From positions 1 through 38,114 of the forward strand of contig JACOEH010000047.1 of NCBI GenBank assembly GCA_024998685.1: a DNA stretch of 38,114 bases, written 5' to 3'. Below the pieces are notes generated by a model. It did not search any database and was not told the origin of the DNA. It was given only the letters and a program-made list of their open reading frames with translations. Origin of the DNA: Nitrospira sp. GTDB lineage: Bacteria > Nitrospirota > Nitrospiria > Nitrospirales > Nitrospiraceae. Numbering within the stretch: position 1 is the first letter of the stretch; each line of letters starts with the position of its first letter. The translations under genes were made by a program, and so were the position numbers. This document shows positions 7,762 to 19,962 of this stretch, piece by piece.

Positions 7762-7945
7762 AGGCGGTGGCCATCGTAGCGAGACCGGTCCATGAGATCA
7801 ACAGCAGACTCACTCTCTTGTCTTTGAGTTCTACGGGCGGGTTCTTAGCTTCTGAGGGGATCGTCACAGGGGGGATTGGGGAAACCTCGCGTGCCTTGAT
7901 ATAATGATTGTAATGATACCAAGCAACATCGATCGGCCTTCTCAT
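7667..7945 (-). CDS. Possible small membrane protein overlapping a lipoprotein gene
   Basis: A 92-residue frame with a polar proline-rich N-terminal half (about residues 1-45) and one hydrophobic helix (VSLLLISWTGLATMATAYV). It fills the gap upstream of the lipoprotein gene and runs 95 bases into it in another frame. The upstream part reads like protein, but the overlap and the weak ribosome-binding site (GGATGC) make it doubtful. It could instead be untranslated promoter DNA between the divergent lipoprotein and lysophospholipase genes. Confidence 0.3.
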   Translation of the reverse strand: MRRPIDVAWYHYNHYIKAREVSPIPPVTIPSEAKNPPVELKDKRVSLLLISWTGLATMATAYVAQVFEDRSDSDDADRVSRRLRNQALYAFG

Positions 7946-7970
7946 AGATGCATCCGCAACATCGCCTGGA

Positions 7971-9137
7971 ATGAATAATATGCCTAGAAAACATATGAGT
8001 AACTTGTGGAACTGCCTGAGAGTGTGCCGATGTTTACTGATATTTCTGAGTATGACGTCGTGTGCAAGCGTGCCCAAGCAAGAGCTTGTTGACTGTGTGC
8101 AATTTGGCAAGGTGACATGTGAGGGTCAGTTGGCAAGGGAGGAATATCAAGCAACGATAGAGCAGTTGCTGGATGCGACGAGACACAGTGGAACCTTTAT
8201 CGGGAAAGACGGTATTCAATTAGCCTATGAGAGGTATCGTCAGCCGGGACATGAGCAGGACGCCATTGTTCTGGTCATAGGGCGCGCCGAGAGCTATGTG
8301 AAATACCACGAATTGATTTATGACTTGTATCGGAACGGGTATAGCGTCTTTGCCTATGATCACCGAGGACAGGGGTTATCGGACAGGATTCTCAAAGGCC
8401 CAAATGACGAACGTAAAGGCTATGTGGATCAGTTCGATGATTATGTTGAGGATCTCAACACGTTGATTGAAGACATCGTTGCTCCGACAGCTCCCCGAAA
8501 GATATTTCTGCTCGCCCATTCCATGGGAGGGGCGATCGCATCATTGTGGGCAGAGCAGCATCCAAAAGGAGCGGATGCTCTTGCGCTCAGCTCTCCCATG
8601 CATCAGCCGGCCTTACCGGGCGGCAAGTGGTTTCACCGAGCCGTCTGCCAATACTACGTGGCGGACAAGGAGGAATCGAAACCGACGGAATATGCCGGGG
8701 ATGGTCCAGTTCAGCTCACGGAGGAGGACTTTACTGACCCTGAGAAAAATGACTTCACGCACAGTCGTATTAGGTTCGAGCGCTTTCTCATGGTGCTGCA
8801 CTCCGATCCAAGGTTGCGACTCACTGGGCCGACCTGGAGATGGGTATCTGAAGCCTGCCGGGGATCTCGCGAAGCAGTTGCCGACGCTTCAAAAATCGCC
8901 ATGCCGATCTTGCTCCTGCAAGCAGGGTCCGATACCGTGGTGAGAGCAAGCGCGCAAGTCACATTCTGCGAGAATTCTTCCAGATGTGATGGGGGAGGGG
9001 TGGTTGTTATCGATGGCGCAAAACATGAGTTGCTCATTGAAAGTGATCCGTATCGGACGGAAGCGCTTACACGCATCCTTGAGTTCTTCGAAAAATACCG
9101 CTCAAAACCATTAAGTCACGAGGTGGGCTCAAGGTAA
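7971..9137 (+). CDS. Lysophospholipase-like alpha/beta hydrolase lipoprotein (PldB type)
   Basis: A 388-residue serine hydrolase of the monoacylglycerol lipase / lysophospholipase L2 group. An N-terminal lipobox (FLSMTSC) predicts an envelope-anchored lipoprotein. The family's DHRGQGLS strand-loop follows, then AHSMGG with nucleophile Ser184, a late Asp in LLLQAGSDTVV, and His in DGAKHELL. It therefore has a complete catalytic triad. ATGs at 7980 and 7995 would shorten only the n-region. It points away from the leftward lipoprotein gene and converges with the next hydrolase operon. Likely role: release of fatty acids from lysophospholipids or monoacylglycerols in the periplasm. Confidence 0.85.
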   Translation: MNNMPRKHMSNLWNCLRVCRCLLIFLSMTSCASVPKQELVDCVQFGKVTCEGQLAREEYQATIEQLLDATRHSGTFIGKDGIQLAYERYRQPGHEQDAIVLVIGRAESYVKYHELIYDLYRNGYSVFAYDHRGQGLSDRILKGPNDERKGYVDQFDDYVEDLNTLIEDIVAPTAPRKIFLLAHSMGGAIASLWAEQHPKGADALALSSPMHQPALPGGKWFHRAVCQYYVADKEESKPTEYAGDGPVQLTEEDFTDPEKNDFTHSRIRFERFLMVLHSDPRLRLTGPTWRWVSEACRGSREAVADASKIAMPILLLQAGSDTVVRASAQVTFCENSSRCDGGGVVVIDGAKHELLIESDPYRTEALTRILEFFEKYRSKPLSHEVGSR

Positions 9138-9170
9138 CGAATGGCCTATGACTCATGGGTTGTCTACTTG

Positions 9171-11120
9171 TTATTTCGGGCTCAACACATCACGGTACAG
9201 TTGCAGAATAAATCCTACCATATGGGAATTCTGATAACCATTATGGCCATTGATAATGCGTGTATCATGGGTACGGACCACCCAAATTGGGTTATACAGG
9301 TCCCTCGGTCCTGAGCCCCAGTTATCTTTCGGTATGTTTTTCGACAGCAGCTGATTGTCCCACGGACCAGGATCGCTTGATTTGCCGGGTAAGTCCTCCA
9401 ATGGGTCCCCACCTTCCTTCACTTCCTGCATGGCAAAGCTTAATCGCACCCTGCCACAAAACGCGCGAGCAGGCCAGTCGTGTTTATTTGCTGTGCTCTC
9501 TTCTCGTTTGTTTTTCCACAGCGATGTAATCTCATCGACTGTACTCTCCGGCAGTTTATCGCCCGAGACCCCCTTGAGAGTTAAGTCGTACCAGTCTGTG
9601 GTCAGGCATGCCTTCTGGCCGGCCTCAATTTCTTTCGGCAGCTCCTTTTTCGTATCGGGGAAAATATCAAGATAATGCGTCATATATCGAGGGATGTGTC
9701 CAACGGTCTTACGGTTTGCGTTACGTTCTTCATCCGCTCTACCGGCTAACTCGGCACCGTCTCTACTTTCAGGGCTATTATCCTGAAATAGCGTACTGAA
9801 CCATCGCCCCCACTTAAAAGCATACTTCGTTGCATAGTCCGAAGTTCCTGTCACGATGACGAGTACCGGGCTCTGGGTAGGAGAATAGGGGCTCCGCTTC
9901 ATTCGGTTTAGTGATGCCTGATACAGTGGTTCAAAGCGTGCTCCCTCAAACGCCGGGTTAATCAGGACAATAAGATCTGCATATGGAGAGGAAACTTCTT
10001 CCCCGACGCGTGTTTCTTCAATCGCACTCTGATCGCTTGCAGTGGGACTGTTCTTGGGTGAGCCTATCCCTGCAGACACACTGTCGATCAAAGATTCCGA
10101 GATTGCATTGTAAATTGCCAGCGACCCAAAACTGTGCCCAAGGATTAATGTCCTCATGGCAACGCATCTACTCTTACTTCCGGCTCGTTCAACACACTTA
10201 TCGTACCATTCACGGGCTTGCCCCATCCTTTTTGCATCGTCGCCCAAGTCATTCACTTTGGCTCTGACATGTCCTAACCGCGCGAATAACTCCCGCGTTG
10301 AACCGAGCGCCACGTCCAATGCCGCTCCCTTCCGATCCCAGAAACTCAGCAGTGCTGGTAAGCCCTGCGCTAAGTCAGATAGAGTCCAATTGGTAGTAAA
10401 GGGTATACGTGGCGAATTAGGGTATTCTTTGACCAGCGCCCCGCGCCATCCCAGATACACCCCAACCACTTTCCGAGGTTTGTTCGATGGATTCCAGTGC
10501 CTTGTGGGCTGGTTTGGCCTATCAGCTTCAAACAATACTGCATTGTAGAGTACTTCTCGTAGTTGTCGTAGGTTCCAATCCTCGAAGTCTGCATTATGTC
10601 GCCACCCATGGGCCGCGACTACTAGGCTGACATCATCAAAGCAAGCTGGGCCTTCAGAAGGCTTGCAGTCCATTCGTTTTGGCGACATGGTATTCTTCAA
10701 GAACTCAAACAGGTTTTCCATCTGGTGCGGGTAATACAGTCGACCCTGGTCGTCAAATTCGACAACGAAAAGATCTGCCGTGCATGTGCCGATTTGTTTG
10801 CACAGCTTTGATTTATAGACAATTGATTCATGAGAGCAATCTGTGTTTCCGGAGCAACTATCACCGATATCAGCTTTAACGGGCTTTTTAAATGCGAAAG
10901 AGAGTTCTTTGTCCTCATTCTCTTTGTCTTCTTCTCTCGCCCGTTGATCTTTTTCAAAGAGCGTTACTGGTACTGCTTTGTGATTCTGACTTGAGAACGT
11001 GCTATCACCTCCTCGGATACTGGCGTTTGACCAGAAGCATCCAGTAGTAAGGCTAACGGCCACTGTTAGGAATACGGTCTTAGAGATCTGTGAACAAAAT
11101 GCACCATTGGTCTGTCTCAT
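9171..11120 (-). CDS. Large alpha/beta-hydrolase lipoprotein
   Basis: A 649-residue protein starting at the ATG at 11120, which has AAAGG six bases upstream and opens directly into a lipoprotein signal (VAVSLTTGC). Mature residues carry a charged linker, a Cys-rich patch (GDSCSGNTDCS), then an alpha/beta hydrolase core: LVVAAHGWRHNAD gives the oxyanion strand, and TLILGHSFGS carries the putative nucleophile Ser330. The final acid and base are not certain by eye, although FWDRKG, VTGTSDYATK and a late THDTRI are candidates. Its first mature residues share a motif with the three lipoprotein genes transcribed before it. Function is unknown; lipase or esterase is inferred. Confidence 0.75.
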   Translation of the reverse strand: MRQTNGAFCSQISKTVFLTVAVSLTTGCFWSNASIRGGDSTFSSQNHKAVPVTLFEKDQRAREEDKENEDKELSFAFKKPVKADIGDSCSGNTDCSHESIVYKSKLCKQIGTCTADLFVVEFDDQGRLYYPHQMENLFEFLKNTMSPKRMDCKPSEGPACFDDVSLVVAAHGWRHNADFEDWNLRQLREVLYNAVLFEADRPNQPTRHWNPSNKPRKVVGVYLGWRGALVKEYPNSPRIPFTTNWTLSDLAQGLPALLSFWDRKGAALDVALGSTRELFARLGHVRAKVNDLGDDAKRMGQAREWYDKCVERAGSKSRCVAMRTLILGHSFGSLAIYNAISESLIDSVSAGIGSPKNSPTASDQSAIEETRVGEEVSSPYADLIVLINPAFEGARFEPLYQASLNRMKRSPYSPTQSPVLVIVTGTSDYATKYAFKWGRWFSTLFQDNSPESRDGAELAGRADEERNANRKTVGHIPRYMTHYLDIFPDTKKELPKEIEAGQKACLTTDWYDLTLKGVSGDKLPESTVDEITSLWKNKREESTANKHDWPARAFCGRVRLSFAMQEVKEGGDPLEDLPGKSSDPGPWDNQLLSKNIPKDNWGSGPRDLYNPIWVVRTHDTRIINGHNGYQNSHMVGFILQLYRDVLSPK

Positions 11121-11302
11121 ATATACCTTTATGCCTCCATACTCTGCCGTCACGCCTCTGTGTTGGCCATGACAATGTGGGTGGAATTGTTCTCTATAGC
11201 TGATTCTGGGAACGGTGAGAGGAACAACGGAATCAGCTATCAACAACAGCTCATGGCGCCGGCCTCCTTCATCTGATGAGAGTTCAAGCTAAGCCCTTGT
11301 AG

Positions 11303-11929
11303 TTACTTGCATGTATTATCTGCGTCGCCTTCGACGAATTTATGGCGCTGTTTACTGAACCCTTTCGTGAGAATGTCTGTAGGGTGAAGGCCGGGGAAGT
11401 TAGTATCCATCCATGTCGTAACAGATTCCCAACACGCCTTGTCATCGTCCGTGGCGTTATCCTTGTGAGCGTTCCTGTAGGCATCGGCAAGTTTATCCGC
11501 GAGCTCGTCCGTTCCCGGGTCATATCCTATAAGCGCTAGAGCATAGTAGTCGCTATTCGCAATGCTTTGAGCGGCGAGGCCTGTTGCGATGTACTGTTCG
11601 ATCTTGGCTGGGCCAAACCAATTGTGGGCAAGATTGAAAGTGGCCAATACCGATGCTGCATCCCTTTTCGGTTTTGGCTGGGTGGTTGTGTTCGGTTGAT
11701 CCACCTTGTTATCGTCTTTTTTCTTAACAGGGACAAGTGCCGCCTCCGCCCTTCGGTATCCAAATGTGACGGCCGGCGCTTGCCCATCGTTGGGATTTCC
11801 CGGAGTGGCCTCCAAACCAACGAGAGTTCCTGTCGCGACAAACACCCGAGGGCCGCCACAAGCGGTGGTGAGTAGCGAAAAGGTGAGGCCAATGATCGTG
11901 ATCAGACATCTGCCTGTTGGGTTATGCAT
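11303..11929 (-). CDS. Lipoprotein of unknown function, paralogue of its upstream neighbour
   Basis: A 208-residue protein with lipobox LLTTAC and a GGAG ribosome-binding site before the ATG. Early mature residues contain VTFGYRRAEAALVPV, closely matching VVLGYKRAEVAIIPAE in the next gene upstream, and both continue with an Ala-rich helical part (IATGLAAQSIANSD versus FATGMAARAAADND). The two are clear paralogues. A Lys/Gln/Pro-rich linker sits between the strand motif and the helices. It begins 27 bases after the preceding gene, which suggests one operon. No named family is recognised. Confidence 0.7.
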   Translation of the reverse strand: MHNPTGRCLITIIGLTFSLLTTACGGPRVFVATGTLVGLEATPGNPNDGQAPAVTFGYRRAEAALVPVKKKDDNKVDQPNTTTQPKPKRDAASVLATFNLAHNWFGPAKIEQYIATGLAAQSIANSDYYALALIGYDPGTDELADKLADAYRNAHKDNATDDDKACWESVTTWMDTNFPGLHPTDILTKGFSKQRHKFVEGDADNTCK

Positions 11930-11956
11930 AGGGGTTCTCCGTCAGAAGGTGTGAGC

Positions 11957-12436
11957 CTAAAAACAATTCTTCTCCGAGGCACCGGTACGGGTATGTCGTA
12001 AAGTGGCTCGGGCAAAATGGGCTTGAATCGCGTCATTGTCGGCCGCTGCTCGGGCCGCCATACCGGTCGCAAATATCGATCTAATCTGTAGGCTGTCTTT
12101 GACGTCGTTTGAGGGCCACTTTTTTGGAGCTTTGAAGACTGTATCAATCCAGTCATACAGGGAGGGATTGGCCATGACACAAAAGTCGCCGAGAACGGCA
12201 TAGGTGTCCTCGGTTTCTGTTGCGGCCTTATGTTCAGCAGGAATAATGGCCACTTCGGCCCGCTTGTATCCCAGAACCACGTGGGGAGGTTGATTTCCGT
12301 TTTGAGAGGCGTCAATCCCGAACTTGGTGCTTGTGGTAAACACGAGATAGTTGTTGCAGCCGAAGAGACTTGTTACGGCTGTAATCGTGAATAGTGACCG
12401 GCAAAGTGTCTTGAGCATCCTCCGTCGCAGTGTCAT
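11957..12436 (-). CDS. Lipoprotein of unknown function, paralogue of its downstream neighbour
   Basis: A 159-residue lipoprotein (lipobox TSLFGC). The ATG at 12436 overlaps the TGA of the preceding gene as ATGA and has AGGAGG seven bases upstream, so translation is coupled. A TTG six bases earlier is less likely. The N-terminal strand motif HVVLGYKRAE and the C-terminal IFATGMAARAAADND are shared with the next gene downstream. It lacks that paralogue's Lys/Pro-rich linker. Function is unknown. Confidence 0.7.
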   Translation of the reverse strand: MTLRRRMLKTLCRSLFTITAVTSLFGCNNYLVFTTSTKFGIDASQNGNQPPHVVLGYKRAEVAIIPAEHKAATETEDTYAVLGDFCVMANPSLYDWIDTVFKAPKKWPSNDVKDSLQIRSIFATGMAARAAADNDAIQAHFARATLRHTRTGASEKNCF

Positions 12437-13077
12437 CGACAAGCCTCCTGGTTGATCAAGGTCGCGAATTCGGACATGGTTCGCGCAAGTTCAAATCGAG
12501 TTTGGAGTGGATTAGCTCTCCCATAGCAAAGGATGTAGTACGCATTATCTTGAGGTCTGTGGCGACTGTCTGCGGAATAACCGATCGTCACGTAGCCGTC
12601 GTCGCTTCCTCCACCCACGGATGCTCCTAAGACCGAGCGATCGTAGAACTCCGGCGAGACAATATGAACGATGCGGCCATACAAGAAATTCCACTGCCAC
12701 CCATCAGAGGCAGTCGGTGTGGAGCAAGATGTACCGAGCAACCCTTTGCACCACTGAAGTGATGCCTGCTTGTCGTGCTCGACCGGGTTTGCCGCCACTC
12801 GCTTTAAGAAACCAATTGTAAGTCCCATATGCTCTCCTCCCTCTAAGACGAGCGGTACAACAGAGCGTTCCTCCCAGAGGTAAGCGTTTCCCTGTGGCGG
12901 CTGATTCATGTGAACTAAGGCGGGGCCCCACAGGTAGTCTGTGTCGGCAGATCGCCATATGCAGCCGGTTGACAACAGCAAGAACGAAAGGATGAGAAAG
13001 CCATGAAACAAGTGCGGTAGTGAGGATGATGTTGTCACATGGCTCTCAAGAAATAATGTGATGACTGGTCGGCGCAT
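12433..13077 (-). CDS. Lipoprotein of unknown function, first gene of a four-lipoprotein unit
   Basis: A 214-residue protein if it starts at 13077, giving a long n-region and the lipobox LLLSTGC. The open frame reaches 13296, but that extension precedes the signal peptide and has no protein character. The mature part is Trp- and Cys-containing (CIWRSAD, LQWCKGLLGTSC) with a Gly-rich strand GASVGGGSDDGYVTIGY. MGLTIGFLKRV resembles the strand motif of the three following lipoproteins, and VVPLVLE resembles AVPVTLF of the large hydrolase. It is coupled to the next gene by ATGA. Function is unknown. Confidence 0.65.
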   Translation of the reverse strand: MRRPVITLFLESHVTTSSSLPHLFHGFLILSFLLLSTGCIWRSADTDYLWGPALVHMNQPPQGNAYLWEERSVVPLVLEGGEHMGLTIGFLKRVAANPVEHDKQASLQWCKGLLGTSCSTPTASDGWQWNFLYGRIVHIVSPEFYDRSVLGASVGGGSDDGYVTIGYSADSRHRPQDNAYYILCYGRANPLQTRFELARTMSEFATLINQEACR

Positions 13078-13488
13078 GCCAGCCACCTTATTGGGAGGCT
13101 TATTCAGCAAGGAACGGACCACGATGAATCCATGAGAATCACGTGAATTCTCGGACATTATGCTGTCACTCTGGAAATGGTGGCGTGTCGAGCTGAATCT
13201 CTTTCGATTCAGGGAGTATCTGAATGGATTCATGGCCTCTCCTCCGAACCACCGGACGACCGAGCTGCCATTCAGCCATGCACTAGCTTGAAGCACGTAG
13301 AGGGAAACCGAATGTCAGATGCGGCAGGATGGTAGCGCCGGAGAAAAAGCAAAGAAATAATTCGTTGGTGTAGGAATATACGGATCTACAGAATAGATGC
13401 ATTCAGCTCTACGGGCAGATAGGGATGAATGGATTCTTAAGATGTCGGGCTATGGCGGGAATTCGACGTTCTGATCTGCCGGAGCGAA
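13078..13488. other. Intergenic region upstream of the lipoprotein unit
   Basis: A 411-base stretch that includes the in-frame upstream extension of the leading lipoprotein gene (to 13296) and about 190 bases without a credible frame. It presumably carries the promoter of the leftward lipoprotein unit and the end of the leftward PIN toxin transcript. I see no RNA gene or convincing repeat. Confidence 0.45.
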
Positions 13489-13890
13489 CTACCTATCGAG
13501 TTCGGTGAGAAAGTCGGCCAATGAGATGATCCTGCAGCCCGCATGTTGCCTGAGCCCAAGCAGATGTCGATCGCCAGTAACGATCCACTGTGCTTCTGCG
13601 GCCTGTGCACATTCAAGAATGCGATTGTCCGGTTCGTCCTTCACGACGTGGAGGATCGGGCGAGGGCGGAGTACTGTTGCGGTTTGACCGATCTCCTCTA
13701 TGGCTTGCTGCGCTCTCTCTTCCACCCAATCGAACTTCGTCTGGAGCACTCGGGCAGTTTCTGTCAGGATCGCCACCGAGGTAAACAATTGAAACTGACT
13801 CTGAATGGCTTTGAGGTAGGCGTTTTCGGCGTTGCCCCCAGGAATGGCAAAGGCTGAAATATAGATATTGGTATCAAAGACGACACGCAC
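13489..13890 (-). CDS. PIN-domain toxin of a type II toxin-antitoxin pair
   Basis: A 133-residue PIN-fold ribonuclease. Acidic metal-binding positions are present: Asp6 in VVFDTN, Glu44 in LTETAR, Asp in EPDNRILECA and Asp in VTGDRHLL. This is the pattern of the 'putative toxin, PIN family' subgroup often paired with ribbon-helix-helix antitoxins. It follows the antitoxin gene by two bases, in the usual antitoxin-first order. VapC-type enzymes cut tRNA or rRNA; the target here is unknown. Confidence 0.85.
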   Translation of the reverse strand: MRVVFDTNIYISAFAIPGGNAENAYLKAIQSQFQLFTSVAILTETARVLQTKFDWVEERAQQAIEEIGQTATVLRPRPILHVVKDEPDNRILECAQAAEAQWIVTGDRHLLGLRQHAGCRIISLADFLTELDR

Positions 13891-13892
13891 GA

Positions 13893-14138
13893 TCAGCGGC
13901 CTTGGAACACCAGTTTCTCCACGTCGGCTTCAGTGAGCACTCCTTTCTTCCTGGCTTTCTTCACGCCGTATCTCTGCAATTCGTAGAACTGCTCTTCCCG
14001 TCGTCGCCGTTCATAGATCGTGAGCATTTCCCTAAACAATTGACTCTTGTTTTTGGCCTCCGCCTTAGCCAGCCGTTCAAAACTCTCGGCGAGATTGGAT
14101 GGAAGTGAAACAGTCACTGGCACGCGTGGGCGCTTCAT
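13893..14138 (-). CDS. Ribbon-helix-helix antitoxin
   Basis: An 81-residue protein. MKRPRVPVTVSLP gives the DNA-binding strand, and ESFERLAKAEAKNKSQLFRE is the two-helix part of a MetJ/Arc/CopG fold; a charged tail (about residues 45-81) would wrap the PIN toxin. I chose the ATG at 14138 over the upstream 14189 because CAGGAGG lies just before it and a promoter/operator occupies the intervening DNA. It should repress its own promoter through the palindrome at 14148-14168. Confidence 0.85.
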   Translation of the reverse strand: MKRPRVPVTVSLPSNLAESFERLAKAEAKNKSQLFREMLTIYERRRREEQFYELQRYGVKKARKKGVLTEADVEKLVFQGR

Positions 14139-14147
14139 GAAGACCTC

Positions 14148-14189
14148 CTGTATGACAAAATCATACAGTGGAGATAGGGGTGAGGTCAA
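14148..14189 (-). promoter_or_regulatory. Promoter and palindromic operator of the RHH/PIN operon
   Basis: Read leftwards: -35 TTGACC (14189-14184), an 18-base spacer and -10 TATGAT (14165-14160). A perfect inverted repeat with 8-base arms, CTGTATGA and TCATACAG, at 14148-14155 and 14161-14168 covers the -10 box and touches the AGGAGG ribosome-binding site. Binding of the antitoxin or the toxin-antitoxin complex here would block transcription. Confidence 0.65.
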
Positions 14190-14227
14190 ATGAAGGACCT
14201 CAACTCAGTGCTTTGCTTTAGCAGGTG

Positions 14228-16702: not shown

Positions 16703-16857
16703 TCGTCACGGAATAGTCTTCTACCCTAACCGGTTTCAGGGAGGAGGTAAAGGAGGTACAAGCGAGGGCTTCCGTGGATTGACTCCCTCCTTCATGAGCC
16801 GTAGTCTGTGCCCTGCGTCGGCCCTAGCAGGCGAGCGTGTCGGCGAAAGGAGCAACC

Positions 16858-19800
16858 ATGGCAAAACCTAAGCGAAGGAAACGAACCGTTTCATCATCAC
16901 GACGAGCGAGGAGTCGCCGAGATGCGAAGGACTTGCAAGGCCGGGAAGACGTAGCTGCCTATTCCTATCGCGAAGACCAGATCGAAGAGGCTCTGGCGAC
17001 GGGCAAGAACGCCGACCAGTTGAAGGCGTATTTCGGCGACGCGCAGTATCAAGAGTTACAGCAGTTGGCGAAGGAAGCCGGGCGCCGGAGTGTCCGAGGG
17101 GGGGCCCGCGTTCTCATCCTTCCCGGCATCATGGGGTCGACGATCGGAAAAGAGCGTCCGATTCTTGACGATGTGCTGTGGTTTGACCCGGTCGATATCA
17201 TGCTGGGACACCTCACTCAACTTGCCCTCGATGGATCGGCCGGCAAATACACGGCACTGGGGGCGATTCCCTTGGCCTATACAGGACTCAAGCTGCGGTT
17301 GAAGCTCGCCGGGTTCGATGCGGATTTTCACTATTACGATTGGCGGCAGGGCTTGGATGTGTTGGGAAACGGATTGGTGAGCAAACTGCGGGAAGAAAGC
17401 GCGGAGCAGGTATGGCTTGTGGCGCACAGTATGGGAGGCTTGGTCGTACGAGCGGCGATCGAGCGGGACTCGTCTGCCACGAAGAAAATCAACCGGCTGG
17501 TGATGCTCGGCACTCCGAACCATGGATCGTTCGCGCCGGCGCAAGCGATTCGGGGTGTCTATCCCGTGGTGAAGCAGGTCGCCGCCATCGACCCCATGCA
17601 CGATGCGGAGGAGCTTTCGTCCCTGGTCTTTACGACCTTTCCCGGCCTGTACCATTTGCTTCCGACCAAGGAGGTGTTTCACGAGGTCGATCTGTTCGAC
17701 CTCGCCTCCTGGCCGACCAAAGGCCCCAGGCCGCCGCAGCCGATTTTGGCAAAAGTCCCGTCGGTGCAGCAGTCCCTGGCGCCTGCCGACAATCGATTTT
17801 TTCTCATCGCCGGTGTGAATCAGGAAACGGTCGTCGGCCTGAAGCTGCACGACAATGAATTTGTGTACGAACAGTCCATGGAAGGTGATGGGACGGTGCC
17901 GAGGACGTTTGCCGAGCTGGCCGGCACACAGACCTATTATATTGAGGAATCCCACGGGAGCTTGCCCAACAATCGCCTCGTCGCTCAAGCGACCATCGAC
18001 ATCATACGGCAGGGCGAGACGTCGCTGTTGCCTCGACAATGGGCGCCGGTCCGGCGCAGCCCGACTCGCACAGTTCGAGAGCAGGCACTCCGAGCACCCG
18101 CCTATGGAGGCCGTCAGGGGAAGGAGTTAACCGAGCAAGAAATCCGCCACGCTTTGGACGGCTTTGTTGCGCCTGACAGCCGAGACCAGCCGGTCGTGGA
18201 TGAAACGGCGCTCACGATCGGAGCGGCGCACCCAAGTCCGCTTGAGCAGCCGTTGAACCAAGTCATCGTCGGCCGACGGAGGCAGCAACGTCTCGACATT
18301 CGACTGGCGTTGGGCAGTATCACGGAGTTGGACAGCCGCGCCTATGTCCTGGGCATCTATCGCAATGTCACGCCCGGCGGCCCGGCGGATGCGCTCGATG
18401 AGCGGATGGGCGGCGCCGTCAAAGATTTTACGGCGAGGCGGATGTTCAGCGGCAACGTGGGTGAAGTGTTCGTCATGCCGACCGGCCGTCATCCGCTCCA
18501 AGCGGATTTCATGATCTTCGTCGGGCTTGGCGACTTCGATCAGTTCAGGAACACGGTATTACAAGTGAGTGCGGAGAACATCGTGCGCATCTGCATCCGA
18601 ACGAGCGTCGAAGAATTCGGCACGGTGCTGCTGGGTGGACGAAGCGGTCAGGACATCGAGTCGACCTTGCAAGATTTGCTGATCGGCTTTTTCCGTGCGC
18701 TGAAAGACACCGACGGGGACCATTGGCTCAGGCGGATTACGATTTGTGAAATGAATCCTCAGCGCTATCAGGACATCCGAGCGGCACTCTTGCGACTTTC
18801 CAGCACTCCGCTCTTTGAAGAAGTCGAGGTCACGTTCGACGAGGTGCGGCTCAAGCCTCCGCTGGTGCCCAGCGTGCCGCGTGCATCGAAAGGGCCCGAG
18901 CCGGCCTATCTCCTGATTCGGCAGGAAGCATCTGCTCGGGACAAGGGCGCGATCGGCTTGACGTCGTCCATCCTGACGCCGGGTTCGAAGGCCGGTGTCA
19001 TCACGGATACGCAACAGCTGCAGAGTGACGCTCTGGATAAGCATTTGGCGAAGCTGGAGTCCCCTTCGCTCAGTCTTGATGCGATGATTCGATTCGGTGA
19101 TGAGCTCGCGCAGCTCGTGCTCCCGAAACGAGTCCTCGCGGTTCTCCCACACATGAAAGAGCAACATTTGGTGGTGGTGCATGATGCACCGTCCTCCCGC
19201 ATCCCTTGGGAGACGATCAGAGTGAACGGATGGGTGCCGGCGATCAATCACGGTTTGAGCCGACGATATCTTGCCGGCAACCTGTCCGTGGCCAAGTGGC
19301 TGGAGCAGCGGCAACACACCGAGAAGCTCACACTCCTTCTCGTCGTGAATCCGACTCAAGATTTGCCGGGAGCTGAGAAAGAGGGGCAGCGAATCGAGAG
19401 CTTATTCGGCGCTCAGCCAGGAGTGGTCATTGAGACGGTGCACGGCCCGCAAGCCACGAAGGCCGAATTACTGCGGAAATTTCGATCCGGCGCGTATGAT
19501 GTGGTGCATTATGCGGGACATGCGTTCTTCGATCCGCGCGTGCCGGCTCGCAGCGGGATTTTGTGCCATGGCAAGGAAGTCTTGAGCGGAGAAGATGTGG
19601 CCGCGATCGGCAATCTTCCCAGCCTCGTGTTTTTCAACGCCTGTGAAGCAGGCCGGATCAGAAATCCGCCGGAAAAGAAGATGCAGAATTTGGATATCGA
19701 GAAGCGCCTTGCACGGACCGTGGGACTGGCGGAGGCATTCTTGCGAGGAGGTGTGGCCAATTATGTGGGAACCTACTGGCCGGTGGGTGATGAATCGGCC

Positions 19801-19962
19801 GGAGCGTTCGCGCAAACCTTCTATACTGAATTGTTACGGCAACAGACTATCGGAGCGGCACTCTTGGCCGGCCGCGAAAAGGTGCGGGTCGAGCTCGAAT
19901 CCGTGGATTGGGCCGACTATATTCATTACGGCAGCTATGATTTCGCGCTGAAACAGTCGTAA
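16858..19962 (+). CDS. Lipase-CHAT protease fusion protein
   Basis: A 1034-residue multidomain protein starting at the ATG at 16858 (AAGGAG six bases upstream; an earlier GTG at 16837 lacks a site). A basic N-terminal tail (KRRKRTVSSSRRARSRR) is followed by an LCAT/lipase-like alpha/beta hydrolase from about residue 80: ILPGIMGS oxyanion strand, AHSMGG with Ser191, GTPNHGS, and GDGTVP before a His. Residues of about 470-660 (FVGLGDFDQFRNTVLQ, LLGGRSG) look like the N-terminal macro-like domain of M17 aminopeptidases without its catalytic half. The C-terminal 270 residues are a CHAT caspase-like domain: HYAGHAFFDP with His888, and FFNACEAG with Cys929, preceded by SRIPWE. There is no signal peptide, so it should be cytoplasmic. 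A lipase as protease-gated effector is inferred. Confidence 0.85.
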   Translation: MAKPKRRKRTVSSSRRARSRRDAKDLQGREDVAAYSYREDQIEEALATGKNADQLKAYFGDAQYQELQQLAKEAGRRSVRGGARVLILPGIMGSTIGKERPILDDVLWFDPVDIMLGHLTQLALDGSAGKYTALGAIPLAYTGLKLRLKLAGFDADFHYYDWRQGLDVLGNGLVSKLREESAEQVWLVAHSMGGLVVRAAIERDSSATKKINRLVMLGTPNHGSFAPAQAIRGVYPVVKQVAAIDPMHDAEELSSLVFTTFPGLYHLLPTKEVFHEVDLFDLASWPTKGPRPPQPILAKVPSVQQSLAPADNRFFLIAGVNQETVVGLKLHDNEFVYEQSMEGDGTVPRTFAELAGTQTYYIEESHGSLPNNRLVAQATIDIIRQGETSLLPRQWAPVRRSPTRTVREQALRAPAYGGRQGKELTEQEIRHALDGFVAPDSRDQPVVDETALTIGAAHPSPLEQPLNQVIVGRRRQQRLDIRLALGSITELDSRAYVLGIYRNVTPGGPADALDERMGGAVKDFTARRMFSGNVGEVFVMPTGRHPLQADFMIFVGLGDFDQFRNTVLQVSAENIVRICIRTSVEEFGTVLLGGRSGQDIESTLQDLLIGFFRALKDTDGDHWLRRITICEMNPQRYQDIRAALLRLSSTPLFEEVEVTFDEVRLKPPLVPSVPRASKGPEPAYLLIRQEASARDKGAIGLTSSILTPGSKAGVITDTQQLQSDALDKHLAKLESPSLSLDAMIRFGDELAQLVLPKRVLAVLPHMKEQHLVVVHDAPSSRIPWETIRVNGWVPAINHGLSRRYLAGNLSVAKWLEQRQHTEKLTLLLVVNPTQDLPGAEKEGQRIESLFGAQPGVVIETVHGPQATKAELLRKFRSGAYDVVHYAGHAFFDPRVPARSGILCHGKEVLSGEDVAAIGNLPSLVFFNACEAGRIRNPPEKKMQNLDIEKRLARTVGLAEAFLRGGVANYVGTYWPVGDESAGAFAQTFYTELLRQQTIGAALLAGREKVRVELESVDWADYIHYGSYDFALKQS

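What the first reader, a model, noticed from the sequence alone, without database searches (positions are those of the whole stretch)
9171..13077. Four consecutive lipoproteins sharing a strand motif after the lipobox, ending in a lipase-like hydrolase
All four carry a lipobox and then a short strand with a hydrophobic-x-hydrophobic-[GA]-[FY]-x-[KR] pattern (TIGFLKR, VLGYKRA, TFGYRRA, SFAFKKP). Two are clear paralogues. ATGA and short gaps link three of them. The pattern suggests a shared assembly module that brings an envelope hydrolase and three accessory lipoproteins together. I know of no described system with this layout.
Basis: partly seen in the sequence, partly recalled or inferred. 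Interest (0 to 1): 0.62.

Follow-up and report, generated by a model that had tools for sequence, protein, structure and literature searches.

The report
Lipoprotein trio beside interchangeable exported lipases
A conserved set of small membrane-anchored proteins in Nitrospira and its relatives often sits beside exported fat-splitting enzymes, and the enzyme differs from one relative to the next, which hints at an undescribed cell-surface system that can swap its enzyme.

Summary
The four genes are there, but the "shared strand" is not one feature. B and C are paralogues that share a domain of about 100 residues without Pfam or NCBIfam match. A is a separate family with a conserved, similar strand. 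In D (GHSFG, hydrolase-like) the strand is chance-like: missing from D's relatives, and shuffles of D give it 6% of the time.

The gene order is conserved. The B/C module is in 28 of 269 genomes of the class. In the 27 loci read it is a tandem pair (10), one fused two-module protein (14) or single (3). An A or A-like small lipoprotein gene lies directly upstream in 26; the other is cut by a contig end.

In 11 of 27 loci the next gene is an exported, hydrolase-like protein, from five sequence families of two likely folds (patatin, a/b hydrolase). The window's closest relatives carry different enzymes.

Best reading: an outer-membrane accessory complex (A plus a B-C pair) serving interchangeable exported lipases, perhaps for antagonism. 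Adjacency and swaps are shown; mechanism and use are inferred. In 14 of 27 loci no hydrolase was recognised, so incidental neighbours in a hot spot remain a serious rival.

The parts
12433..13077 (-). gene A: lipoprotein of about 214 aa (start codon uncertain; frame is open to 13296), strand LTIGFLKR
   Evidence: 9 of 269 class genomes
11957..12436 (-). gene B: lipoprotein of about 159 aa from the ATG that overlaps A's stop (ATGA)
11987..12367 (-). B/C module in gene B
   Evidence: profile match, (the row is in the model's own seed); model of mature B gives a beta hairpin, low confidence
11303..11929 (-). gene C: lipoprotein of 208 aa, paralogue of B
11495..11869 (-). B/C module in gene C
   Evidence: row in the model's own seed
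9171..11120 (-). gene D: lipobox-bearing a/b-hydrolase-like protein of 649 aa; HGW..H.A, GHSFG (Ser330), Asp428, His482 invariant in 6 aligned rows
   Evidence: no Pfam, NCBIfam or PADLOC hit
11195..11240 (.). inverted repeat ATAGCTGATTC / GAATCAGCTAT in the C-D gap, possible separate control of D
   Evidence: read directly; not tested
13104..13233 (-). conserved leader element of about 130 bp that ends 26 bp upstream of gene A; not specific to this cassette
   Evidence: no Rfam match, no covariation to speak of
7805..14225 (.). variable segment of about 6.4 kb that holds P0005, D, C, B, A and a PIN-like gene pair; absent at the same site in G352 (L117)
7971..9137 (+). P0005: lysophospholipase-like protein with a lipobox by eye, tail to tail with D, in the same variable segment
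   Evidence: Pfam Hydrolase_4 3.5e-51; NCBIfam lysophospholipase L2 3.4e-80 but under its cut-off

Best explanation
A, B and C are an outer-membrane lipoprotein accessory cassette that works with an exported lipid- or ester-splitting enzyme encoded next to it, and the enzyme is an interchangeable part. Shown: the A then B/C order and its tight packing; B and C as a pair, often fused into one protein; repeated direct adjacency to exported hydrolase-like genes of five sequence families; different enzymes next to the closest relatives of the same trio. Inferred: that the proteins meet physically; that B and C form a two-module unit; that A/B/C dock, stabilise, carry or gate the enzyme at the outer membrane. 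The use I think most likely is attack on envelope lipids, of other cells above all (antagonism), because the enzyme is swapped like an effector and the window's cassette lies in a variable chromosomal site; nothing here tests that.
For: Module census: 28 of 269 class genomes. Of 27 loci read, 10 tandem pairs, 14 fused two-module proteins, 3 single (the weaker first module of the fused proteins scores from 0.0096 in L048 to 3.9e-11). A or A-like gene directly upstream in 26 of 27 (L051 is cut by a contig end). The next called gene downstream on the same strand is an exported hydrolase-like protein (signals by eye) in 11 of 27: D in the window; patatin type 1 in L040, L043-L046; patatin type 2 with lipobox in L087 and L093; a/b type in L041 (GHSTG; best Pfam only 0.005); DUF676 type in L097 and L099 (3.3e-6, 1.6e-7). 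Patatin matches at the seven patatin loci are all over the family cut-off. Two further loci have a candidate near: L090 (relative of L041's enzyme, fourth gene on) and L092 (GHSGG protein directly upstream, no Pfam hit). Patatin is rare: 69 matches in 16 of the cassette genomes, the seven included; in G151 the one beside the cassette is the only one. Chance of 7 of 27 loci with a patatin next to them at that rate: 7e-16 (one neighbour) or 9e-14 (two); if only two independent events are counted, 3e-4 or 1e-3. Partner switching: for both modules window and L041 are sisters (98/90, 99/84) with different enzymes, and so are L087 and L090 (95/99, 98/91).
Against: In 14 of 27 loci no exported hydrolase was recognised beside the cassette; in six of these (L042, L049, L088, L091, L098, L100) the next gene is on the other strand, in others it is a membrane, CBS, pentapeptide, FRG or unknown protein (not every flanking gene was searched). 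D's family is in 13 of 269 class genomes at E 1e-6 and, set, only the window has it beside the module. In G354 the start of a D-like gene follows an unrelated gene at the same site. The site is a hot spot that also takes unrelated cargo. L043-L046 are close kin, so 11 loci are not 11 events. Three of the five enzyme families are a/b-hydrolase-like and may share distant ancestry. A-likeness of the upstream genes rests on hhalign 63-78%. No structure, interaction or expression evidence. Signal peptides were read by eye.
Confidence: 0.48

Rival explanations
1. Incidental neighbours. A-B-C are an independent envelope lipoprotein set; exported hydrolases merely collect in the same variable chromosomal sites.
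For: No hydrolase recognised in 14 of 27 loci; an empty site and unrelated cargo between the same flanking genes; D's family without the module beside it in 12 of 13 genomes, and a D-like gene start in G354 after another gene. Other patatin genes also lie near such sites (L122, L181).
Against: In 11 loci the hydrolase is the next gene downstream on the same strand, in several genera, and patatins there are far above their genome rate.
Confidence: 0.28
2. Immunity. A, B and C are lipoproteins that protect the cell from the neighbouring phospholipase, as Tli proteins protect from T6SS Tle lipases.
For: Lipoprotein next to lipase is the Tle/Tli layout; Tli1 and Tli3 are called outer-membrane lipoproteins (passages of PMC9860674). 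L097 has a weak Tle3 match (0.0055, under the cut-off). The window's genome has a T6SS sheath gene.
Against: The enzymes carry their own export signals by eye. The same trio stands with enzymes of different families, while immunity proteins are known to be enzyme-specific. No T6SS sheath match in 13 of 19 cassette genomes searched (several are drafts). 14 of 27 loci have no enzyme recognised.
Confidence: 0.13
3. Signalling or defence. A/B/C are surface sensors whose output is the neighbouring gene, be it a lipase, SIR2, FRG, CBS or membrane protein.
For: FRG gene two genes downstream in L089 (6.1e-22), SIR2-like (4.2e-5, just under the cut-off) and PhoD-like (5.2e-36) genes in L090; weak CBS matches next to the cassette in L089 and L095; membrane-protein-like genes near the cassette in L048, L090, L094 (by eye).
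Against: No PADLOC hit for A, B, C or D; for the partners tested only one weak one (AbiEii 0.013, L043). The hydrolase partners are exported. FRG, SIR2 and PhoD were each seen once.
Confidence: 0.11

Closest known systems
T6SS Tle lipases with Tli immunity lipoproteins
   Same: phospholipase or a/b hydrolase gene beside an outer-membrane lipoprotein gene; several lipase families (family layout recalled; Tle3/Tli3 from passages of PMC9860674)
   Different: here the enzymes carry export signals by eye, a constant trio goes with different enzymes, and 13 of 19 genomes gave no T6SS sheath match
SitBAI lipoprotein toxins of myxobacteria (PMC5562445, passages seen)
   Same: overlapping envelope genes, accessory protein encoded upstream of a lipoprotein effector, effector part varies, variable genomic elements
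   Different: SitB has a type I signal; SitA is one lipoprotein with variable, typically nuclease-like ends and a downstream immunity gene; here whole hydrolase genes differ and no enzyme-specific immunity gene was recognised; TraA was not looked for
Patatin-like phospholipases (PF01734)
   Same: partners in L040, L043-L046, L087, L093 match the family over its cut-off and keep GGG and DGG motifs
   Different: exported by eye, 560-1214 aa, and next to the A-B/C cassette
Lysophospholipase L2 type hydrolases
   Same: P0005 beside D resembles them
   Different: below the NCBIfam cut-off (269.5 against 362 bits); lipobox by eye; not part of the conserved cassette

Membership tests
A-B/C lipoprotein cassette (defined here) | A or A-like lipoprotein gene directly 5' of B/C module gene(s) | tested here: met
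   26 of 27 loci, the other cut by a contig end; A-likeness by hhalign 63-78%
A-B/C lipoprotein cassette (defined here) | two B/C modules, tandem or fused | tested here: met
   24 of 27 loci; window is tandem
shared strand in all four proteins | strand conserved in relatives of each protein | tested here: not met
   met in B/C and, as a similar motif, in A; missing in relatives of D
alpha/beta hydrolase (gene D) | GxSxG nucleophile with conserved Asp and His | tested here: met
   Ser330, Asp428, His482 invariant in 6 rows; that these three form a triad is inferred
alpha/beta hydrolase (gene D) | match to a family model | tested here: inconclusive
   D has no Pfam hit; relative L004 matches Abhydrolase_6 at 3.8e-4, under its cut-off
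alpha/beta hydrolase (gene D) | alpha/beta hydrolase fold | not tested
T6SS Tle/Tli pair | lipase without export signal, delivered by a T6SS of the same cell | tested here: not met
   D starts with a signal-like stretch and lipobox by eye; sheath match in 6 of 19 cassette genomes, the window's included
SitBAI | SitA-type conserved lipoprotein part fused to variable toxin, SitI downstream, TraA present | not tested
   layout compared with passages of PMC5562445 only
known anti-phage defence system | match to a PADLOC model | tested here: not met
   none for A, B, C, D; AbiEii 0.013 for one patatin partner

The most novel reading that the evidence does not exclude
A new kind of modular envelope weapon or lipid-remodelling device of Nitrospira and relatives: a constant outer-membrane carrier made of A and a B-C two-module unit, which presents or exports a lipase that is exchanged as a whole gene between lineages.
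Probability: 0.27. Interest if true: 0.8.

Novelty: new variant of a known kind. Interest (0 to 1): 0.55.

Why it matters
Two lipoprotein families without Pfam or NCBIfam match get a genomic meaning: they travel together and often stand beside exported lipase-like enzymes of different families. If they act together, this is a carrier with interchangeable enzymes at the outer membrane of Nitrospirota. The B-C fusion and the swaps between sister loci give clean predictions for interaction tests.

Tried and rejected
One strand module shared by all four: rejected. Fold of the module: B model pLDDT 54, A model 38; Foldseek of B gave nothing at E 0.001 or better, not used as evidence. PDB sequence search of D: one match at E 0.3, not credible. 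Relatives outside the phylum: D in genome contigs, none; C-type alignment in genome contigs, 4 loci, all titled Nitrospira; viral contigs none; plasmids none for four queries. Other phyla could not be searched whole, so absence outside Nitrospirota is weakly tested.

The leader element as a structured RNA: no Rfam match; one of five predicted pairs has any two-sided change; against that, the window's copy alone folds better than 199 of 200 shuffles (z -2.7). Treated as a DNA or sequence-level element. It is not specific to the cassette (it also precedes a RoxA-like lipoprotein in L115), and the model found none in G254, G055, G141 and G133. Promoter-like sites 3 against 4.5 in shuffles, terminator-like 6 against 4.0 (sd 2.0): uninformative.

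Dropped rows: G440 (28th genome, E 0.003) was not fetched. G375, brought alone, was fetched (L052) and left out of the 27. G022 lies outside the class and is not in the 27. The patatin count covered 16 of the 28 cassette genomes, chosen by me, the seven with a neighbouring patatin among them; therefore uses 27 loci as n.

Papers: no description of this layout in the listings and abstract starts; passages were seen in PMC5562445 and PMC9860674; two searches gave listings only.
Full report
What is there. The window is G000 contig 74. Four loci fetched by name, all titled Nitrospira, match genomes that the searches call same genus or family, so the organism is a Nitrospira-type member of Nitrospirota (inference). 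On the minus strand A (12433-13077), B (11957-12436), C (11303-11929) and D (9171-11120) follow each other. A's stop and B's start share ATGA; the B-C gap is 27 bp and the C-D gap 182 bp with an 11-bp inverted repeat. All four show a signal-like start and a lipobox by eye. None has a Pfam or NCBIfam match at E 1 or a PADLOC match at 0.1.

The strand. B and C share a domain, not just a strand: C-x(n)-[VI]-x-x-T-x-T-x-x-G-[LI]-[DE] ... P-x-[VM]-x-x-G-Y-[KR]-R-x-E-x-x-x-x-P ... D-x-[YA]-[SA]-V-L ... A-T-G-x-A-A (my reading; invariant over 21 rows are G, Y, R, E, P, G, A). A is another family, whose strand keeps G-[LIV]-[TAS]-[IV]-G with F, Y, L or I after it. A is probably related to the A-like proteins of other loci (hhalign 63% with A9, 76% over 138 columns with A10; A10 with A9 78%; A10 itself pools two blast families that were not tested apart). 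Whether A's hairpin and the B/C hairpin are homologous is open: profile comparisons fail (12%, 25%), while the A families score above other genes with a B/C hairpin profile (rank test P 3e-9 against 248 short genes, 1e-6 against 53 lipobox genes; rows are related, best single E only 6.2). D's strand is not conserved in its relatives and arises in 6% of shuffles.

Distribution. A: 9 of 269 genomes of the class. C: 14 of 269. B/C profile: 28 of 269. A profile of the fused type: 14 of 295 genomes drawn from the phylum, one of them (G022) outside the class; this profile misses the window's own genes. I read 27 of the 28 class loci plus G022. In the 27: tandem B,C in 10 (window, L040-L047, L093), fused in 14 (L048, L087-L092, L094-L100), single in 3 (L049-L051). 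A or A-like is directly upstream in 26 (L087's A-like gene was missed by my gene picker and seen). G022 has an A-like gene and a single module gene, with a PG-binding/CHAP protein (2.2e-13, 1.7e-6) overlapping from upstream, without a signal that I can see.

Partners. Next called gene downstream, same strand, in 11 of 27: D (window); patatin type 1 (L040, L043, L044, L045, L046); patatin type 2 lipoprotein (L087, L093); a/b-hydrolase-like lipoprotein (L041); DUF676 lipoprotein (L097, L099). These are five clusters by blast, of two likely folds. Near: L090 (fourth gene on, same cluster as L041's enzyme) and L092 (directly upstream). No hydrolase recognised: L042, L047, L048, L049, L050, L051, L088, L089, L091, L094, L095, L096, L098, L100 (14); L047, L051 and L098 are on contigs of 3.5-6.8 kb; L049 has a CHAT-containing protein with hydrolase motifs two genes on, not counted; ten further flanking genes of such loci were checked without a hydrolase. 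Patatin background: 69 matches over 16 of the 28 cassette genomes, one genome with none; the seven cassette patatins are all over the cut-off. At that rate 7 of 27 loci has a chance of 7e-16 to 9e-14 if loci are independent, and 3e-4 to 1e-3 if only two events are counted. L043-L046 are close kin, so the truth lies between.

Swaps. In the tree of modules window and L041 are sisters (98/90 for B, 99/84 for C) yet carry D and an enzyme of another cluster; L040, close by, carries a patatin. L087 and L090 are sisters (95/99, 98/91) with a patatin lipoprotein and a four-gene set that ends in a relative of L041's enzyme. The tool warned of long branches, so deep forks are not used. D's family: 13 of 269 class genomes at E 1e-6, 6 of 295 phylum genomes by the single protein. 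Of the 13, only G000 and G342 are among the 28 module genomes, and in G342 the two lie on different contigs.

The site. Between the same two flanking genes, G352 (L117) has about 210 bp where the window has 6.4 kb (7805-14225). G202 (L048) has A-like plus a fused B-C protein there, G050 (L115) a RoxA-like lipoprotein, G367 (L116) a 1104-aa protein without Pfam hit. So the window's cassette is a variable insertion. The same segment holds P0005, a second lipid-hydrolase-like lipoprotein.

Leader. A 130-bp element just upstream of A (13104-13233) recurs directly upstream of A or A-like genes in L040, L048, L087, L090, near the A-like gene in L091 (a 117-aa frame lies between), and upstream of other lipoprotein-like genes (L115, L165, L166, L171). 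In a DNA search 18 of 59 relatives have it, all in one genus; with a model, 7 of 11 genomes, 3 to 9 matches each. It is local regulation or a repeat, not part of the cassette's definition.

Mechanism. Shown: order, pairing of B and C, repeated adjacency to exported hydrolase-like genes, swaps. Inferred: outer-membrane location (lipobox without Asp at +2, a rule recalled from E. coli), physical complex, carrier or docking function, use in antagonism. Structure prediction did not help.

Verdict. What is most surprising is that the lipoproteins are constant and the enzyme changes. The half of the loci without a recognised hydrolase keeps the confidence just under one half.

Noticed in passing
window 13104-13233 (minus): Conserved 130-bp element with TGAATC repeats upstream of gene A and of several other lipoprotein-like genes in this genus; 3-9 matches per genome in 7 of 11 genomes tested.
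   Followed up: partly
window 7805-14225: Variable insertion between two conserved genes; other genomes have an empty site or other cargo there.
   Followed up: partly
window 13489-14189 (minus): PIN-domain-like gene preceded by a small putative antitoxin gene inside the insertion (read, not searched).
   Followed up: no
window 16837-19962 (plus): 1041-aa protein with an LCAT-like hydrolase part and a C-terminal CHAT domain (1.1e-30); relatives by blast lie in L048, L049 and L052.
   Followed up: no
L116 2652-5966; L051 650-2647: Related large proteins (35% identity) without a credible Pfam hit: one at the window's chromosomal site in G367, one beside a single B/C module in G402.
   Followed up: no
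window 11195-11240: Inverted repeat ATAGCTGATTC / GAATCAGCTAT in the gap between C and D, which may give D its own control.
   Followed up: no
L182 3-335 and 389-1486 (minus): In G354, at the same site, the start of a D-like gene at a contig end follows a 366-aa exported-looking protein whose C-terminus resembles an outer-membrane barrel by eye.
   Followed up: partly
L122 2903-4408; L181 1736-3574: Further patatin genes (5.4e-14, 9.5e-15) in related genomes: one in the same chromosomal region as the window's site, one behind a copy of the leader element.
   Followed up: no
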